NCBI RefSeq assembly: GCF_000816105.1 | Contig: NZ_CP007140.1 | Location: 372,001-436,000 of the forward strand | DNA from: Thermococcus guaymasensis DSM 11113 | GTDB taxonomy: Archaea > Methanobacteriota_B > Thermococci > Thermococcales > Thermococcaceae | Length of the DNA: 64,000 nucleotides | Direction of reading: 5' to 3' | Part shown: positions 12,287-20,933 of the stretch, piece after piece | Position numbering within the stretch: the first letter of the stretch is position 1 | How the letters are laid out: each line of letters starts with the position of its first letter | Notes under the pieces: model-generated | Seen by the model: the letters and a program-made list of their open reading frames with translations, nothing else | What the model was told of the DNA's origin: nothing | Databases searched by the model: none | Position numbers and translations under genes: made by a program

Positions 12287-14407
12287 TCAGCGGCCCCCTT
12301 CGGGGGGCTTTCTTTCAGGGGGCATGTTTTCACGAACAACCTCCAACCTCAGCTCCCGGAGGAGTACCTCCAGCTCGTCCCGCTTCCACTTCCTGGGCAG
12401 CCCGCCGGGTCTGCTCTTCCTCTTCCGCAGGAGGAACTTCCTGAACGTCTGCACCTCGCGGTAGTAGCCGTAGGCAAGGTATCCTAGGATCAGGACGAGG
12501 ACGAGGAGAATTGCTGTGGAGAGCTTCCAGTAGTTTGTCTCCTTCGGTAGGTAGGGTTCTATGACGTTTGAGATGTCTTCTGCCAATGCTCCGGCATTGG
12601 TAGAGTTCTTGAGGGTCTCGTTAACGAAATCGGGGAGCTCCTCTTCGCTTGGATATACATGGATGACCTTCTCTTTGACGATCACTTCTGGTGGAACGGT
12701 GTCAATGACGAGGACTGTACCAAGGTCGAGCTCATGTTCCCCGCCGAGGGGGTCGCGGTAAACGAGCGACGCCCGTATCGGGAAGCGGCCGGTTTCGAGG
12801 GGCCTGACCTGGATGGTCTTCTCGATGTTGTTGCCAGCGCTCAGGTTTCCGAGTCCTATCAGCGCGGGCCCGACTACTCCCTGGGGGTAACTCAGGTGAA
12901 GTTCTGCGTCCGTTATGTACTCGAACCTGCCGTCGGTTCCAGTTGCTGTAACGTTGATGATGACCGAGACAGGGCTCATGTTTTCGGTATGGACGTATGA
13001 ATTCCAGCTTCCGCTGGAAGTTAAGTTTGAGCCGAGTATCGTGACGTGGAGGTCGGGAACATCGTAAACCCGGATTGGTATATCGGGCGTCGATTTCACC
13101 TGGACTTTCTCCCCGCTTTCAGCGTAGTACGTGGCGACGACTCCGGAGATAGTGAATTCTCCGGGGCTCGTGGGCCTGAGGACATAAACGATCGCTGGAA
13201 CCTTTGAATAAGGCGCGAGATCACCGACCGACCAGCCTGTCTCATTGCCAACCAGTTCGAATCCATTCGGGACAGGTGCCGCTATTACGAGGTTCTTCGC
13301 CTCTCCCGGGCCGTTGTTAGCAACGTTTATTGAGACCGCGACCATGTCCCCCGCCATCAGCTCCGTTGGGACGGCACTTATGGAGACCGAAACGTTGGCC
13401 GGCTCGGGAGGCTTTGAGGCGGCTGAGCCGAGGGGTGCGAGGACTTCGATAAGTGCTCTCCCATGATCCACCTCGGTTCCATCCACCGCCAGCATGATTG
13501 GGATGTCCCCAACATCTGTGACGCCCTCCCCAACGGGCACGGCGAGATCTTTAGTTACAGAACTGCCGTTTAAGAAAGTAAAGTTGACCGTAAACAGAGT
13601 TTTGTTGTGTGTCACATCCGTCACAAGTATGGTAGAAGTTCCCAGCGGGGTCTCAACGCTTAGTGGAATCCCCTGATGGAGATACCCCTCCCACACTTCC
13701 ACGAAGACCGTGGGCTCAGTTTCCACTGGCTTCGATCCGTTGGTCGCGGGTATCGTCTGCATGGTCAGGTTTTCGGCGTCAAGCTTAGGAAGGTAAACGT
13801 TCAGCCATGCCACGTCTTTTGAGACGCCCTGGAGTTCAACCTGAAGGTAATTCACATACATAACCCCCGGGGCAAGCTGGTAGTCGAATCCTCTGGACTG
13901 CCCAATGGTAAGGTTGAACACACTGAACTCGGTCAGTGGCGGCACCTTAACCCCGATCGTTGCCCCGTTCGCCCAGGAAGCAAGGAGACGCACCATGACG
14001 TTCTTGTTTATCACAACTGTTTCATTTGGAACCATCTGGAGGTTTTCTCTGACCTTAACGAGCGGTGAGACTACTGAAATGACTATAAGGCCGTTCTCCC
14101 TGTCTATAGAGTTAACGACGATTTCAAAGACCGCTGAATCTTGGGTGGGGAAATAGCCGATTTCTCCCTCCCGGAGGAAGAGCAACTGAACACTGTTTTG
14201 ATGCGCCACCCTGATCGTGACGAGGCTCCAGTTAGTGCTCACATCATAAAACTGGATGGTATAGTTAGCTATCCTAACGCTGTCCCCCAGCCCGAGGATT
14301 ATCGGGGAGATCTCGGCACTCCAGCTTCTCTCAGCGTGCACCTGCGGTGCGTAAATGGGCAACAGGAGAAAAATTAGCAGTACTGAAAGAGCCCTTCTTA
14401 AACCCAT
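12287..14407 (-). CDS. Large membrane-anchored surface protein with DUF11/CARDB-like repeats
   Basis: A 706-residue protein. Residues 1-26 form a signal peptide ending near VHA. The extracellular part contains at least two beta-sandwich-like modules; one (around residues 365-460) reads [20 protein letters not shown] then [11 protein letters not shown], typical of DUF11/CARDB adhesion-like domains. Near the C-terminus comes one membrane helix ([20 protein letters not shown]) and a basic cytoplasmic tail of about 60 residues. Function unknown; a cell-envelope role is likely. It lies 60 bases downstream of aspS on the same strand. Confidence 0.75.
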
Positions 14408-14466
14408 TTCACTCCCCCCTGTTAATGCTGAAATTAAAAGGGCAGAAAAGTATAAAGGAGTTTTGC

Positions 14467-15783
14467 TCACGGAACCAGCCTCTTCCTGTCCCTCGGGAAG
14501 AGGATTACCTCCCTAATGTTCGGCAGGTCGAGCATCTGCTTTATGAGCCTCTCTGCACCAAGGCCAAAGCCTCCGTGGGGCGGCATTCCGTAGCGGAAGG
14601 CCTTGAGGTAGAACTCGAAGGTAGCAGGGTTGAGGCCCTTCTCCCTTATCTGCTCGACGAGGACGTCGTAGCGGTGCTCCCTCTGGCCACCGGAGGTTAT
14701 CTCAACGCCTCTGTACTCGAGGTCGAAGGCCCTGCAGATTTCAGGCTTGTCGTCGTACTTCATTATGTAGAACGGCTTCGCCTCGCTCGGATACTTGTAT
14801 ATGAAGTAGAGCAGAGCGTTTTCGTTCTCCATCATGTACTTCCCAAGGAGCTTTTCACCCTCGGTGTCTATGTCCTCGCCCCAGGGGATTTCCTTACCGA
14901 GGTCGGCGAGGATTTCAAGGGCCCTGTCATAGCTGAGCCTCGGGAACGGGAGCTTTGGCTCCTCCAGCTCGAAGTTGAGGGTCTCAAGCTCCTTCGCGTT
15001 GTGCTCGCGGACGTAGTTTATCGCGTGGGCGACGAGCCTCTCAAGGAGCCCCATAACCTCCTCCTCGTTCTCGATGAAGGCCATCTCGGCATCAACGCTC
15101 CACGCCTCGTTGAGGTGCCTGGTCGTGTTGTGCTCCTCGGCGCGGAATATCGGGGCAATCTCATAGACCCTGTCGAGGCCGCTCGCCATCATTATCTGCT
15201 TGTAGAGCTGGGGGCTCTGGGCGAGGAATGCATCTTTCTCGAAGTACTTCATCGGGAAGAGCTCGGTTCCGCCTTCGGTCGCGGTGGCGATGATCTTCGG
15301 GGTGTGTATCTCTATGAAGCCGTTCTCGTGGAAGAAATCCCTGATCGCCTTGAAAACGCTGGAGCGTATCTTGAAGATGGCCATTACCTCTGGCTTCCTG
15401 AGATCCATGAAGCGGTTGTCGAGGCGCGTGTCGAGCTCTGCCTTTACCTTCCCCGTCGGGTCAAGCGGGAGCGGACTCTCGGCCCTGTTGAGGACTTCGA
15501 GCTTCTCCGGGAGGATTTCGAAGCCGAGCTTTGCCTTCGGGGTGAAGTTGACGATTCCCTCAACGGCCACAACGTCCTCGCCCTTGAGCTTCGGGATGAG
15601 CTTGAATATCTCGGGGTCAACCTTCTTCTTTGGAGCCGTAATCTGGACTATCCCCTCCCTGTCCTTGAGCCAGAGGAACTTTATTCCGCCCAGATCCTTG
15701 ACTTCCCACACCCAGCCGGCCACTTTAACGCGCTGGCCGTTGAGCTCCTCGGTTATCTCGCTTGAGTAATGCGTCCTGTACAT
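14467..15783 (-). CDS. aspS: Aspartate-tRNA ligase
   Basis: A 438-residue class IIb aminoacyl-tRNA synthetase that charges tRNA with aspartate. The N-terminal OB-fold anticodon-binding domain (VAGWVWEVKDLGG) is followed by motif 2 (FRAEEHNT) and motif 3 (GFGLGAERL) of the catalytic domain. The start at MYRTHY matches the usual archaeal length. Whether it is discriminating or also charges tRNA-Asn cannot be told from sequence alone. Confidence 0.96.
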   Translation of the reverse strand: MYRTHYSSEITEELNGQRVKVAGWVWEVKDLGGIKFLWLKDREGIVQITAPKKKVDPEIFKLIPKLKGEDVVAVEGIVNFTPKAKLGFEILPEKLEVLNRAESPLPLDPTGKVKAELDTRLDNRFMDLRKPEVMAIFKIRSSVFKAIRDFFHENGFIEIHTPKIIATATEGGTELFPMKYFEKDAFLAQSPQLYKQIMMASGLDRVYEIAPIFRAEEHNTTRHLNEAWSVDAEMAFIENEEEVMGLLERLVAHAINYVREHNAKELETLNFELEEPKLPFPRLSYDRALEILADLGKEIPWGEDIDTEGEKLLGKYMMENENALLYFIYKYPSEAKPFYIMKYDDKPEICRAFDLEYRGVEITSGGQREHRYDVLVEQIREKGLNPATFEFYLKAFRYGMPPHGGFGLGAERLIKQMLDLPNIREVILFPRDRKRLVP

Positions 15784-17136: not shown

Positions 17137-17958
17137 TTAGCCTACTCTGGAATCGACGACTCTCTTCAGAAGCTCTACAAGGGCGACGTGAACATCAATG
17201 GGAACCCCATCAACGCTGACTTCCTGCCTCTTGCTCACACCGTCTATGATACCGTTCTCCACGAGGAGCCTGACGACAAAGGCCTCGTCCCAGTCAGCGA
17301 GAAAGTTCTCTCCGAGCTCCAGGGAGGCCCGTGCTATCAGTCCGTAGGCCCCCCAATTGGAAACCGCTGAAACCACCAGCTCGTCGGTCTCAACGGTGCT
17401 GGCTATCCTCTCTCCAAGGGGAATGTGCTTAATGATCAGATCCCTGATTTTTCCCATCCCTACCTCGTTGCCTCCATCCCCAATTCCAATCGTTGGGACG
17501 CCGTAGTCCCTGGCCTCCTCAGCGATCCAGTCAAAAGTCTCTCCTTCTATTCTAAGGCCAGACATGGAATAATGGTTTCCGTCTCTGGCCCTTCCAGGGG
17601 TCTCAACAAAGATCACGAGATCGTAGTTTGGAAGGTCCGGATTTCGTGTGAACTTTACTGAGAACGACTTCTGAAGCGGTGCCATGGCGTTGATTACCGC
17701 CTCATGAGCGAGGATCTCAGCGCTTCCTCCGAGCTCTGTGATAAGTTTGCTGAGTGCGAGTGCTCCAGGGGGACCATCGGTCTCGGGGACGTTCATAGGG
17801 GGGATTGGAAACCCCGTTACCACCAGAACTCTTTCGGAGTTGTCAAGCAGGATTTCCGCCGCGTTTTCAAGGAAGCGAAAGTTGCGCTTTCGGTAATCAA
17901 GATAAAGGGAAAGTACCCCCCTGCCACCAATGTCCGTGTTTATGATGTGGGCTATCAT
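17137..17958 (-). CDS. DUF4392 (glutamate cyclase-like) protein
   Basis: A 273-residue protein. Blocks such as VLVVTGFPIPP, ETDGPPGA, IGDGGNEVGMG and AVSNWGAYGL match the DUF4392 family, whose mammalian member is the D-glutamate cyclase domain. The archaeal substrate is unproven. ATG 17958 overlaps the stop of the 59-residue gene upstream (ATGA), so translation is coupled. It is the fourth gene of the overlapping cluster starting at 19533. Confidence 0.8.
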   Translation of the reverse strand: MIAHIINTDIGGRGVLSLYLDYRKRNFRFLENAAEILLDNSERVLVVTGFPIPPMNVPETDGPPGALALSKLITELGGSAEILAHEAVINAMAPLQKSFSVKFTRNPDLPNYDLVIFVETPGRARDGNHYSMSGLRIEGETFDWIAEEARDYGVPTIGIGDGGNEVGMGKIRDLIIKHIPLGERIASTVETDELVVSAVSNWGAYGLIARASLELGENFLADWDEAFVVRLLVENGIIDGVSKRQEVSVDGVPIDVHVALVELLKRVVDSRVG

Positions 17959-18134
17959 TCTTCCACCTCGTGGACGACGATGCGGACTTTCCTGCCCTTG
18001 ATGGCCTCCTTGAGCTTCCACCACAGTTCGGTGGGCTCTTCACTCCTGTGGACAAGCTCGTGGCCATTTTCGAGCTTTACCCTTCTTTCATCGTACTTCA
18101 CAAAGACGCCCTCGGTCTCGAAAACCTTTGCCAT
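17955..18134 (-). CDS. Small 59-residue protein in an overlapping operon
   Basis: A short gene that fits exactly between its neighbours: its ATG (18134) follows the TAA of the HAD gene with no gap, and its TGA overlaps the ATG of the DUF4392 gene. The product begins MAKVFETEGVFVKYDERRV and is rich in charged residues with WWKLKEAIKGRKVRIVVHE. It has no membrane segment and no recognised family. The exact spacing on both sides is the main argument that it is real. Confidence 0.8.
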   Translation of the reverse strand: MAKVFETEGVFVKYDERRVKLENGHELVHRSEEPTELWWKLKEAIKGRKVRIVVHEVEE

Positions 18135-18779
18135 TTACACCACCTCCAGTACCTTTCTAAGCTCGTGAAGCGTTCTGATTTTGAAGTCGGGGAAGTGGAA
18201 ATCCTCACCTCCATCCCTTGCTATCCAGACGGTTTTCATTCCGACGTTTTTTCCACCGTAAATGTCCTGCCGAAGCGAGTCCCCCACCATAACGGCTTCC
18301 CGTGGGCTCACTCCCAGCTCTTCAAGGGCCCGAAGGAAGATCTTCGGCTCGGGTTTTATGGCTCCAACATCGTCTCTCGTCACGACCGCGTCGAAGTACC
18401 CCTCCAGACCGGTTAGTTCGAGTTTAAGCCTCTGGTAGGCCGGCCCGCTGGTCACGACACCGAGCTTGAGGCCTTTTTCCTTCAACCATTCGAGGGTGGG
18501 GACGGTATCGGGGTAAACATGGAGCTTGTGGGGATACCTCCTCAGCAGATCCTCGTACCTCAGATCGAGATCAAAGAGCCTGAAGAAAAAGTTCCAGTCG
18601 TGCCACTCATAGGTCTCTCTTCTTGCCAGGATCTCGCCGAGGAACTTATCTCTCGCTTCCTCCTTGTTGATCCCGAATTTCTTCGAGAGCTTCTCATAAA
18701 CCTGGGGGAGAAAGAGCTGGATAAGGGGCATCTCGGTAAGCAGCGTGTGATCGATGTCAAAGAGCACAGCCTTTATCAT
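18135..18779 (-). CDS. HAD-superfamily phosphatase
   Basis: A 214-residue haloacid dehalogenase-type hydrolase. Motif I is FDIDHTLL with the nucleophile aspartate, motif II the serine/threonine region GVVTSG, motif III the lysine in GAIKPEP, and motif IV VGDSLRQDI. The helical cap lies between motifs I and II. The start ATG 18779 follows a GGGGTGA site; the 5' end overlaps the FtsZ-like gene by 23 bases. The substrate is unknown; small phosphorylated metabolites are usual. Confidence 0.85.
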   Translation of the reverse strand: MIKAVLFDIDHTLLTEMPLIQLFLPQVYEKLSKKFGINKEEARDKFLGEILARRETYEWHDWNFFFRLFDLDLRYEDLLRRYPHKLHVYPDTVPTLEWLKEKGLKLGVVTSGPAYQRLKLELTGLEGYFDAVVTRDDVGAIKPEPKIFLRALEELGVSPREAVMVGDSLRQDIYGGKNVGMKTVWIARDGGEDFHFPDFKIRTLHELRKVLEVV

Positions 18780-19533
18780 CGCCTTCACCCCACTCCCTGA
18801 CGAGGAGTGCTATTACTTCCATCCCGCTTTTAACTTCTCTGTCAGTTGCCATCCCCCAGATGACGTCCTTTTTTCTCAGTATCACCTGAAACTTTCCGAG
18901 AACTTCGTGTGCCTCTTTTAAAGCCACATCGTCATGGGCGAGGGTTATTACGATCCCCCTGTCCCAGATCCCCCAATGCCAGCTCAGATCAACGCTCCTT
19001 AAGAGCCGAAGTATCCCAACGTTCCCTCCTCTGATGACTGAGAAAAAGTCCGCATAGTCAACATTTATGAGCATCTGCCCCTCAAGGGTTTTTATCAGGG
19101 TCGAGACCGCCCGGGCTATTGAGCCTGAGGCTTCGTCGTAGGCTTCGCTTAGAGGCTTTTTGTCGTCGAAGAATTCCCAGAGGGAATCGTAGAAAACCGT
19201 GTCAAAAAGCCCCGCCCATCCCGGCTTCTTCTCTTCCACGAGCTCCCTTGCGGGTGTAAAGACGTAGGCAAGTTTGATCGCCCTTTCGGGAACGCTGTTG
19301 ACTATCAGCCTGAGGATCTCCACGTTGATGGGCTTATCCTCCGTTAGGATCCAGACTATCGAGTCCTCTGGGATGGCTGAAAAGAAAAGGGGAACCCTTC
19401 TCATGTACTCCTCGGTTCTCAGAAGGTATCTTCCGGGGTTTATGGTAACCTTAACTGCGTCTACCGTTATCTTATTGACCACCTTTGAAGCGGCTCCCCC
19501 TATCCCAACAAAAACGTGCGTAAAGCCTACCAC
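18757..19533 (-). CDS. Divergent FtsZ/tubulin-like protein without the GTP loop
   Basis: A 258-residue protein. The N-terminus (THVFVGIGGAASKVVNKI) resembles the first strand and glycine loop of FtsZ. The second half resembles FtsZ too: INVDYADFFSVIRGGNVGIL aligns with the FtsZ INLDFADV..MSNGG region, and ITLAHDDVALKEAHEVL plus VIWGMATD with its C-terminal domain. The GGGTGTG tubulin signature for GTP is missing and the middle is short, so it probably does not hydrolyse GTP. It leads a cluster with a HAD phosphatase, a small protein and DUF4392. The assignment rests on eye alignment. Confidence 0.65.
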   Translation of the reverse strand: MVGFTHVFVGIGGAASKVVNKITVDAVKVTINPGRYLLRTEEYMRRVPLFFSAIPEDSIVWILTEDKPINVEILRLIVNSVPERAIKLAYVFTPARELVEEKKPGWAGLFDTVFYDSLWEFFDDKKPLSEAYDEASGSIARAVSTLIKTLEGQMLINVDYADFFSVIRGGNVGILRLLRSVDLSWHWGIWDRGIVITLAHDDVALKEAHEVLGKFQVILRKKDVIWGMATDREVKSGMEVIALLVREWGEGDDKGCAL

Positions 19534-19573
19534 TTCTCTTCCCGATAAGAGAAATGGGAAAAGGGTTAATAAA

Positions 19574-20794
19574 TCATTCGAGGGTCGCGTGCTTCTTCCT
19601 CATGTCTTTTTCGGTCTTCTGGAAGGTCGCCATGAGGAGCGCTATTATGCCGTCGAGGAATATCATGGTCGAATCCTCGAAGAGGGTACCCATCGGGGCT
19701 ATCCACTTGTACTTGGTGAGCATCTGCCTCGCTATGTAGTCCGTTGGGATGTCCGTCTTGGTCCTCCCCGGTATCTCTACCACGACGTCGGCGAGCTTTC
19801 CGAGCGTCGAGTTGGCATAGGAGGTTATGGCGGCGACCTTTCCGCCCTGGTCCTTGGCGATCTTGGCGGCCTCGACTATGCTCTGGGTCTCGCCCGAACC
19901 GCTTATTGCTATCAGGAGGTCTCCCGGTTCAAAGGCCGGCGTTATGGTCTCGCCAACGACGTAGACTTTGAAGTCGAGATGCATGAGCCTCATGGCGAAG
20001 GCCTTTCCAACGAGGCCGCTCCTTCCGGCGCCGTAGATGAATATCTTGTTGGCCCCTATCATTGCATCGACGAAGCCCCTGACCTGCTCCAGCTTGAGGC
20101 TGTCGGCGACGTTGTGGATGTGGTCGAGGATGTCGGTCATCGCCTTCCTTATCGTCATCATATACTCGCCCCAGAAGAGGTCTATTATCTGCCTCGTCAC
20201 CTTCTCCGGGTCTTTTGCCTTTGTTATGGCACCGCCTACGATGATTATCGTCGCACCCAGCTCAATGACCTTCGGGATGGTCTCAAGGTTCAGTCCGCCT
20301 GCAACGGCCACCGGGACGTTCACGGCCTTGACTACCTTTTCAAGGTCTTCGAGGGGGTTCTTGCCCTGCGCCTGCTCGTCTATGCCAGTGTGGACGAGGA
20401 TGTAGTGCACGCCCATCTTTTCGAGTTCCTTGGCGCGCTTGACCTTGTCCTTGACACCGATGAGGTCTACCATCACCCTGATTCCGTAGCGCCTTGCGAC
20501 CTCAACTGCGTCCTTTATCGTCTTGTCATCGGCGACACCGAGGATAGAAACGACGTCTGCACCGTGGCGGGCCGCCATCTCCACTTCAAGGGCGCCAGTG
20601 TCCATGGTCTTGAGGTCTGCAACGATCTTCCTGTCCGGGAAGCGCCTCTTGAGGATTTCAACAGCGCGCATGCCCTCCTTCTTGATGAGGGGAGTTCCAA
20701 CCTCAAGCCAGTGAGCCCCGCCGCGGGCGGCCTTCTCTGCGATAGAAATAGCCTGTTCAATGTCAGTTAAATCAAGGGCAACCTGGAGTATCAT
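19574..20794 (-). CDS. hps-phi: Bifunctional 3-hexulose-6-phosphate synthase/6-phospho-3-hexuloisomerase
   Basis: A 406-residue fusion. Residues 1-210 are the synthase (LQVALDLTD, VADLKTMDTGALE, VDLIGVKD, VAGGLNLET). The rest is the SIS-fold isomerase (FIYGAGRSGLVGKAFAMRL, ISGSGETQSI). In Thermococcales it runs in reverse to make ribulose 5-phosphate from fructose 6-phosphate, replacing the missing oxidative pentose phosphate pathway, and can also fix formaldehyde. The start is the second ATG, six bases after GGAGG. It supplies RpiA (33758-34438). Confidence 0.96.
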   Translation of the reverse strand: MILQVALDLTDIEQAISIAEKAARGGAHWLEVGTPLIKKEGMRAVEILKRRFPDRKIVADLKTMDTGALEVEMAARHGADVVSILGVADDKTIKDAVEVARRYGIRVMVDLIGVKDKVKRAKELEKMGVHYILVHTGIDEQAQGKNPLEDLEKVVKAVNVPVAVAGGLNLETIPKVIELGATIIIVGGAITKAKDPEKVTRQIIDLFWGEYMMTIRKAMTDILDHIHNVADSLKLEQVRGFVDAMIGANKIFIYGAGRSGLVGKAFAMRLMHLDFKVYVVGETITPAFEPGDLLIAISGSGETQSIVEAAKIAKDQGGKVAAITSYANSTLGKLADVVVEIPGRTKTDIPTDYIARQMLTKYKWIAPMGTLFEDSTMIFLDGIIALLMATFQKTEKDMRKKHATLE

Positions 20795-20933
20795 CCCCAT
20801 GCCTCCGAGGATTTTTCAGTGATGGGTTATCAAGTTCTCTTTTAAACCTTTGGTGTGAATGCTGACTTTGTACAACTTTCCGTCAAAGAGGACTGGCCAC
20901 ACTTTCACAGAAGAGAATGAAAACAAAAAACGC

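What the first reader, a model, noticed from the sequence alone, without database searches (positions are those of the whole stretch)
18757..19533. FtsZ-like protein lacking the GTP-binding loop
Both ends of the protein align by eye with FtsZ (VGIGGAASKVVNKI; INVDYADFFSVIRGGNV; ITLAHDDVALKEAHEVL; VIWGMATD), but the GGGTGTG signature and much of the nucleotide domain are missing. A tubulin-superfamily member that cannot bind GTP would be a scaffold or an FtsZ regulator. It may belong to distant FtsZ-like groups reported in archaea; I cannot verify which.
Basis: partly seen in the sequence, partly recalled or inferred. Interest (0 to 1): 0.6.

Follow-up and report, generated by a model that had tools for sequence, protein, structure and literature searches.

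The report
FtsZ relative without GTP pocket
Heat-loving archaea of the order Thermococcales carry a shortened relative of the cell-division protein FtsZ that has lost the pocket for its fuel GTP but has kept, without exception, the part that triggers GTP burning in a neighbouring FtsZ, so it looks like a built-in cap or brake for the division filament, although nobody has tested it.

Summary
The gene at 18757-19533 (-) is an intact 258-aa protein of the FtsZ superfamily. Profile-profile comparison aligns it end to end with FtsZ2 (E 1.4e-11), and its alignment-based AlphaFold model matches only FtsZ among the best 50 PDB hits. None of 56 distinct orthologs has GGGTGTG, and T2-T6 are deleted or replaced. 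The gene is under strong purifying selection. It is present in every Thermococcales genome where its locus is assembled, always between hexulose-6-phosphate synthase/isomerase and a HAD phosphatase gene. The new point is asymmetry: the T7 synergy-loop residues (N157, D159, D162), which in FtsZ catalyse GTP hydrolysis in the adjacent subunit, are invariant in all 56 orthologs, whereas 14 of 15 other FtsZ-invariant polar residues are lost. A second loop-less FtsZ-like family in a sister lineage shows the same pattern. Best mechanism (inferred, untested): the protein docks its T7 face on the GTP face of a true FtsZ, probably FtsZ2, and caps the filament or triggers terminal GTP hydrolysis, while its own rebuilt upper face binds something else. 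A 2023 survey noted an extra divergent member in two strains and called it likely strain-specific; that is very probably this protein, and it is order-wide.

The parts
18757..19533 (-). GTP-loop-less FtsZ-like protein (called ZL here), 258 aa
19474..19512 (-). T1-loop remnant FVGIGGAASKVVN (residues 8-20); G10 and G12 invariant, the rest of FtsZ's GGxGxN mostly lost
19171..19206 (-). Family-specific conserved block FDTVFYDSLWEF (residues 110-121) at the T6 position of FtsZ; the most conserved stretch of the family, a candidate new binding site on the former nucleotide face
19048..19083 (-). T7 synergy loop EGQMLINVDYAD (residues 151-162) with the catalytic NxDxxD pattern N157, D159, D162, invariant in 56/56 orthologs
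18958..18987 (-). WHWGIW block (LSWHWGIWDR, residues 183-192), lies where FtsZ has the H9 region; W185, W187, G188, W190 invariant
18847..18870 (-). FtsZ C-domain strand KDVIWGMA (residues 222-229), W226-G227 shared with all FtsZ
19574..20800 (-). Bifunctional hexulose-6-phosphate synthase / 6-phospho-3-hexuloisomerase (HxlAB), directly upstream in nearly all ortholog loci examined
18135..18788 (-). HAD hydrolase of family TIGR02253, overlapping the end of ZL; directly downstream in all ortholog loci examined
17137..18024 (-). D-glutamate-cyclase-like C-terminal domain protein (PF14336), next conserved gene in most loci

Best explanation
An FtsZ paralogue (most likely from the FtsZ2 side) turned into a one-sided FtsZ partner. 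Shown: FtsZ-type sequence and predicted fold; loss of GTP-binding loops T2-T6; invariance of the T7 catalytic loop; lack of the C-terminal tail motif that anchors archaeal FtsZ through SepF; strong purifying selection; fixed operon position. Inferred: its T7 face docks on the GTP-bearing face of a real FtsZ subunit (FtsZ2 first choice, then FtsZ1), completing that subunit's active site. Because it offers no GTP face of its own, no further subunit can add, so it caps the GTP-exposed end of a filament or sequesters and discharges GTP-FtsZ monomers. It would be the geometric opposite of SulA and MciZ, which occupy the T7 side of FtsZ (own knowledge). The former nucleotide face carries a new invariant patch (FYDS) that probably binds a second partner or ligand. 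The operon with the pentose-supplying HxlAB enzyme suggests, weakly, that this partner or ligand links division to metabolism.
For: N157, D159 and D162 are invariant in 56/56 orthologs although overall identity falls to about 44%. Of FtsZ-invariant polar positions, T7 keeps 3/3 and the rest 1/15 (Fisher p=0.005). The same 3/3 versus 1/15 is seen in the loop-less FtsZ-like family of a sister lineage. In FtsZ these residues act on the GTP of the neighbouring subunit, and mutating any of them suppresses assembly (PMC8936486). dN/dS is about 0.08-0.14 against the nearest homologs. FtsZ1, FtsZ2 and CetZ are present in the same genome as possible partners. The SepF-binding GID-type tail (PMC8178401) is missing from the window protein. 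Precedent for an FtsZ regulator acting on FtsZ2 and raising its GTPase: chloroplast ARC3 (title of Shaik et al. 2018, seen as a reference; negative regulation of assembly in PMC5471200).
Against: No interaction, GTPase or localisation data exist, and no complex could be modelled here. The C-terminal domain of the model has low confidence (residues 181-236, pLDDT about 40-57). Other contacts of the FtsZ bottom face (H10, S9) are not visibly FtsZ-like, and FtsZ1 positions G274, A276 and G279 just after T7 are replaced by N, G and R in all orthologs aligned. The p-value treats related columns as independent and rests on few columns. The operon partners are metabolic, not division genes. A role of the T7 acids in metal binding or in a homodimer is not excluded.
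Confidence: 0.5

Rival explanations
1. Metabolic rival: the FtsZ fold was recruited for a job with its operon mates (RuMP enzyme HxlAB, HAD phosphatase), for example as an assembly factor or a sugar-phosphate or nucleotide sensor, and has nothing to do with division.
For: Operon order HxlAB-ZL-HAD in every ortholog locus examined, with gaps of a few to about 55 nt or overlaps in most, apart from a phosphoglycerate mutase gene inserted in three. The most conserved block (110-121) lies on the former nucleotide face. No division gene is in the neighbourhood.
Against: It does not explain why exactly the FtsZ catalytic N, D, D are kept while nearly all other FtsZ-invariant polar residues are lost. 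Archaeal ftsZ genes commonly sit among unrelated genes, ftsZ1 with translation genes for instance (PMC8178401).
Confidence: 0.2
2. Co-polymer or side-binding scaffold: the protein inserts in or beside FtsZ filaments and bundles or curves them rather than capping ends.
For: FtsZ-type fold; invariant WHWGIW block; heteropolymers of FtsZ paralogues are known from chloroplasts (PMC5471200).
Against: Insertion inside a protofilament needs a nucleotide face for the next subunit, and that face is gone. No lateral-contact data.
Confidence: 0.13
3. It still binds a nucleotide in a changed pocket and forms filaments of its own.
For: G10-x-G12 of T1 is invariant, G15 and the T2 asparagine are mostly kept, and the Rossmann-like N-domain is well predicted.
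Against: T3, T4 and T5 deleted, the H7 guanine-contact Asp replaced by S/A/T, the T6 Asn lost.
Confidence: 0.1
4. Decaying pseudogene or strain-specific relic.
For: A related divergent protein was called likely 'strain-specific or redundant' in PMC9856176. One assembly (G090) holds a second, frame-disrupted copy.
Against: dN/dS about 0.08, all 56 orthologs used are intact, order-wide distribution. Genomes without it lack the whole locus or end in it at a contig edge.
Confidence: 0.01

Closest known systems
Archaeal FtsZ2 (and FtsZ1), TIGR00065
   Same: End-to-end profile alignment, FtsZ fold, T7 NxDxxD loop, C-domain IWG strand
   Different: No GTP loops T2-T6, no H9, no C-terminal SepF-binding tail, 32.8 bits against a cut-off of 295.2
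'Additional highly divergent TSF protein' of T. gammatolerans EJ3 and Thermococcus AM4 (Brown & Duggin 2023, PMC9856176)
   Same: Very probably the same family: genomes with matching lengths have no other extra FtsZ relative
   Different: That paper reports it in two strains only and proposes strain-specific or redundant roles; the present data show it throughout Thermococcales. No accession could be compared.
CetZ
   Same: Tubulin superfamily, also present in all Thermococcales
   Different: CetZ keeps the GTP signature (GGGTGAG) and has a different T7 (TLDASD); both are separate genes in this genome (L013)
FtsZ-like family of a sister lineage (L115, L116, L117, L118; found here)
   Same: GTP signature lost, T7 NIDFAD kept
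   Different: About 310-340 aa, N-domain length nearly kept, different neighbours (STT3-like membrane protein, ITPase-like, rpS15-like), still 95.8 bits to TIGR00065
Chloroplast ARC3
   Same: FtsZ regulator reported to inhibit FtsZ assembly and raise FtsZ2 GTPase
   Different: Plastid protein with a MORN region; ZL is one short FtsZ-like unit in archaea. Similarity of action is a proposal, not a test.
SulA and MciZ (bacterial FtsZ inhibitors, own knowledge)
   Same: Proposed one-sided binding at the FtsZ polymerisation interface
   Different: Unrelated to FtsZ in sequence and occupy its T7 side; ZL would offer a T7 side and occupy the GTP side

Membership tests
FtsZ (functional GTPase, TIGR00065) | Score over the curated cut-off of 295.2 bits | tested here: not met
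   32.8 bits
FtsZ (functional GTPase, TIGR00065) | GGGTGTG tubulin signature (T4) and the other GTP loops | tested here: not met
   0/56 orthologs; T3-T5 deleted, T6 Asn and H7 Asp replaced
FtsZ (functional GTPase, TIGR00065) | T7 synergy loop NxDxxD | tested here: met
   56/56
FtsZ (functional GTPase, TIGR00065) | C-terminal SepF-binding (GID-type) tail | tested here: not met
   Absent in the window protein; loose match in 3/56 orthologs; motif from PMC8178401
FtsZ (functional GTPase, TIGR00065) | GTP binding, hydrolysis and polymerisation | not testable with these tools
   Needs purified protein
Tubulin/FtsZ superfamily (fold) | FtsZ fold by structure comparison | tested here: met
   Model pTM 0.74; the 50 best PDB hits are all FtsZ, best E 2.1e-8, TMq 0.66; C-domain confidence low
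Tubulin/FtsZ superfamily (fold) | Full-length sequence homology | tested here: met
   hhalign against FtsZ2 E 1.4e-11 over 235 columns
CetZ | CetZ-type GTP site and T7 | tested here: not met
   FtsZ-type T7 and no GTP site; CetZ itself is L013
FtsZl1/FtsZl2 families of Makarova & Koonin 2010 (PMC2875224) | Membership by profile or tree | not tested
   Sequences not at hand; the text passages found describe no such Thermococcales member
ARC3 | MORN region beside the FtsZ-like domain | tested here: not met
   258 aa, aligned with FtsZ over residues 8-246; no other Pfam domain

The most novel reading that the evidence does not exclude
Archaea have evolved, possibly twice, dedicated non-GTP-binding FtsZ paralogues that keep only the catalytic T7 face: a trans-acting GTPase activator and end cap for the division filament. 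In Thermococcales it is tied by a fixed operon to pentose-phosphate supply.
Probability: 0.35. Interest if true: 0.85.

Novelty: new variant of a known kind. Interest (0 to 1): 0.6.

Why it matters
How archaeal Z-rings are regulated is largely unknown: SepF is the established anchor and few regulators are described. An order-wide FtsZ paralogue that has lost its own GTP site but keeps the residues that fire its neighbour's GTP would be a natural, genetically tractable version of a one-sided filament cap, testable in T. kodakarensis. It would also correct a published reading that took such a protein for strain-specific.

Tried and rejected
Single-sequence AlphaFold gave a useless model (pLDDT 32), replaced by an 11-sequence alignment. 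Chance resemblance: rejected. Pseudogene: rejected. Linkage to ftsZ2: about 41 kb away in this genome and in two near relatives, but not conserved elsewhere. Phylogenetic origin: the tree puts the family on the FtsZ2 side of the FtsZ1/FtsZ2 split, next to the sister-lineage family, but with a branch of 5 changes per column, so long-branch attraction cannot be excluded and one or two origins stay open. Viral contigs hold no relative of the sister-lineage family. Literature: locus-tag guesses for the neighbourhood found nothing; the FtsZ-like papers read do not describe this family except, probably, the two-strain remark in PMC9856176. Distribution beyond the class: the peptide-pattern scan of genome contigs with the window protein found only Thermococcales records, which cannot exclude distant relatives elsewhere.

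Full report
WHAT IS THERE. The window lies in a 1.92-Mb Thermococcus genome (genus judged from the named close relatives). The reported ORF is exact: GTG at 19533, stop ending at 18757, minus strand, 258 aa. I call it ZL. Pfam is silent on the window protein, but NCBIfam's ftsZ model hits it at E=4.6e-8, far below that model's cut-off. When orthologs are pooled, M. jannaschii FtsZ appears in the PDB at 4e-7. Profile-profile comparison aligns ZL residues 8-246 with FtsZ2 at 1.4e-11 and with FtsZ1 at 1.4e-8. AlphaFold on one sequence failed (pLDDT 32). With 11 orthologs it gave pTM 0.74 and mean pLDDT 69.6, with a very confident N-domain and a weak C-domain. The 50 best PDB matches of that model are all FtsZ, the best at E 2.1e-8, probability 1.00, TM 0.66.

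IT IS A REAL, CONSERVED GENE. A search of 115 genomes of the class found one clear ortholog in nearly every genome of family f1 (Thermococcales, judged from the named loci), across six genera, at 44-83% identity; other lineages gave only ordinary FtsZ matches. The f1 genomes without a full ortholog (G056, G070, G077, G082, G084, G085) either also lack the upstream hxlAB gene or have it cut at a contig end, so these absences look like assembly gaps. All 56 distinct ortholog sequences used are open reading frames, with dN/dS about 0.08-0.14 against the nearest homologs. Gene order hxlAB - ZL - HAD phosphatase is found in every ortholog locus examined, usually with gaps of a few to about 55 nt or overlaps; in three loci a phosphoglycerate mutase gene sits between hxlAB and ZL.

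WHAT WAS LOST AND WHAT WAS KEPT. Aligned with 27 FtsZ1/FtsZ2/FtsZ3 sequences of the class, ZL keeps 13 of 65 FtsZ-invariant columns. The T3 region, the T4 signature GGGTGTG, part of T5 and helix H9 are deleted. The T6 Asn, the H7 Asp that touches guanine and the T1 Asn are replaced. The C-terminal tail is gone. The kept polar residues are the three of the T7 synergy loop (N157, D159, D162; 56 of 56 orthologs) and one Thr. The contrast of 3/3 in T7 against 1/15 elsewhere has Fisher p=0.005; columns and sequences are related, so I treat it as indicative. In S. aureus FtsZ the corresponding N208, D210 and D213 act on the GTP held by the adjacent subunit, and changing any of them suppresses assembly (PMC8936486). 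Three stretches are the most conserved of the family: residues 110-121 (FDTVFYDSLWEF) at the T6 position, the WHWGIW block, and T7. So the nucleotide face is not merely decaying; it has become something else.

A SECOND CASE. Nine of ten genomes of a sister genus carry another FtsZ-like protein (about 310-340 aa; L115-L118, L164-L167) without the GTP signature but with T7 NIDFAD, in a different neighbourhood. The tree joins it with ZL, but on branches of 2.9 and 5.0 changes per column, so one or two origins cannot be decided.

MECHANISM. Shown: homology, fold prediction, losses, retention of T7, selection, operon. Inferred: ZL offers its T7 face to the GTP face of a real FtsZ subunit and, having no GTP face itself, ends the chain there, possibly firing the terminal GTP. 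FtsZ2 is the first-choice partner because ZL profiles score most Thermococcales FtsZ2 above FtsZ1 and the tree puts ZL on the FtsZ2 side; FtsZ1 is the alternative. CetZ is less likely because its own T7 is of another type. The role of the new conserved face and of the metabolic operon is open. A nutrient-to-division link is attractive but only suggested by gene order. Rivals are a purely metabolic function, a scaffold, and residual nucleotide binding.

WHAT IS KNOWN. Brown & Duggin 2023 (PMC9856176) mention an additional highly divergent tubulin-superfamily protein in T. gammatolerans EJ3 and Thermococcus AM4, 'likely strain-specific or redundant'. Two genomes here with lengths 2,045,438 and 2,086,428, which match those strains from memory, have FtsZ1, FtsZ2, CetZ and ZL and no other FtsZ relative. 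So ZL is very probably that protein, and the present data show it is order-wide. Other papers read do not describe it. Chloroplast ARC3 is the nearest functional precedent: it negatively regulates FtsZ assembly (PMC5471200) and, by the title of Shaik et al. 2018 seen in a reference list, enhances FtsZ2 GTPase.

VERDICT. A real, conserved, non-canonical FtsZ paralogue: a new variant of a known kind. Identity is near certain. The cap/activator mechanism is about even odds and directly testable.

Noticed in passing
L115:6028-7017, L116:4466-5455, L117:979-1950, L118:4776-5840: A separate FtsZ-like family in a sister genus (9 of 10 genomes) also lacks the GTP signature but keeps T7 NIDFAD; conserved neighbours are an ITPase-like gene, an rpS15-like gene and an STT3-like membrane protein gene (named by eye).
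   Followed up: partly
L161, L162, L150: Another lineage of the class (f4) has a third FtsZ with an intact GTP signature and a divergent sequence; its tail does not look like the usual SepF-binding tail.
   Followed up: no
L019, L021, L022: In three loci a phosphoglycerate-mutase-like gene (named by eye) is inserted between hxlAB and the FtsZ-like gene.
   Followed up: partly
L174:2445-3232: Genome G090 holds a second copy of the locus in which the FtsZ-like gene is split into two overlapping frames and hxlAB is reduced to a C-terminal remnant; duplication or mixed assembly.
   Followed up: partly
window 14347-15765 (+) and 19274-20770 (+): Very long open frames (472 and 498 aa) lie antisense to the aspartyl-tRNA-synthetase-like gene and to hxlAB plus the start of the FtsZ-like gene; probably mechanical, not tested.
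   Followed up: no
window 17137-18024 (-): A D-glutamate-cyclase-like (PF14336) protein follows the HAD gene in most Thermococcales loci; its link to the operon is unexplained.
   Followed up: no
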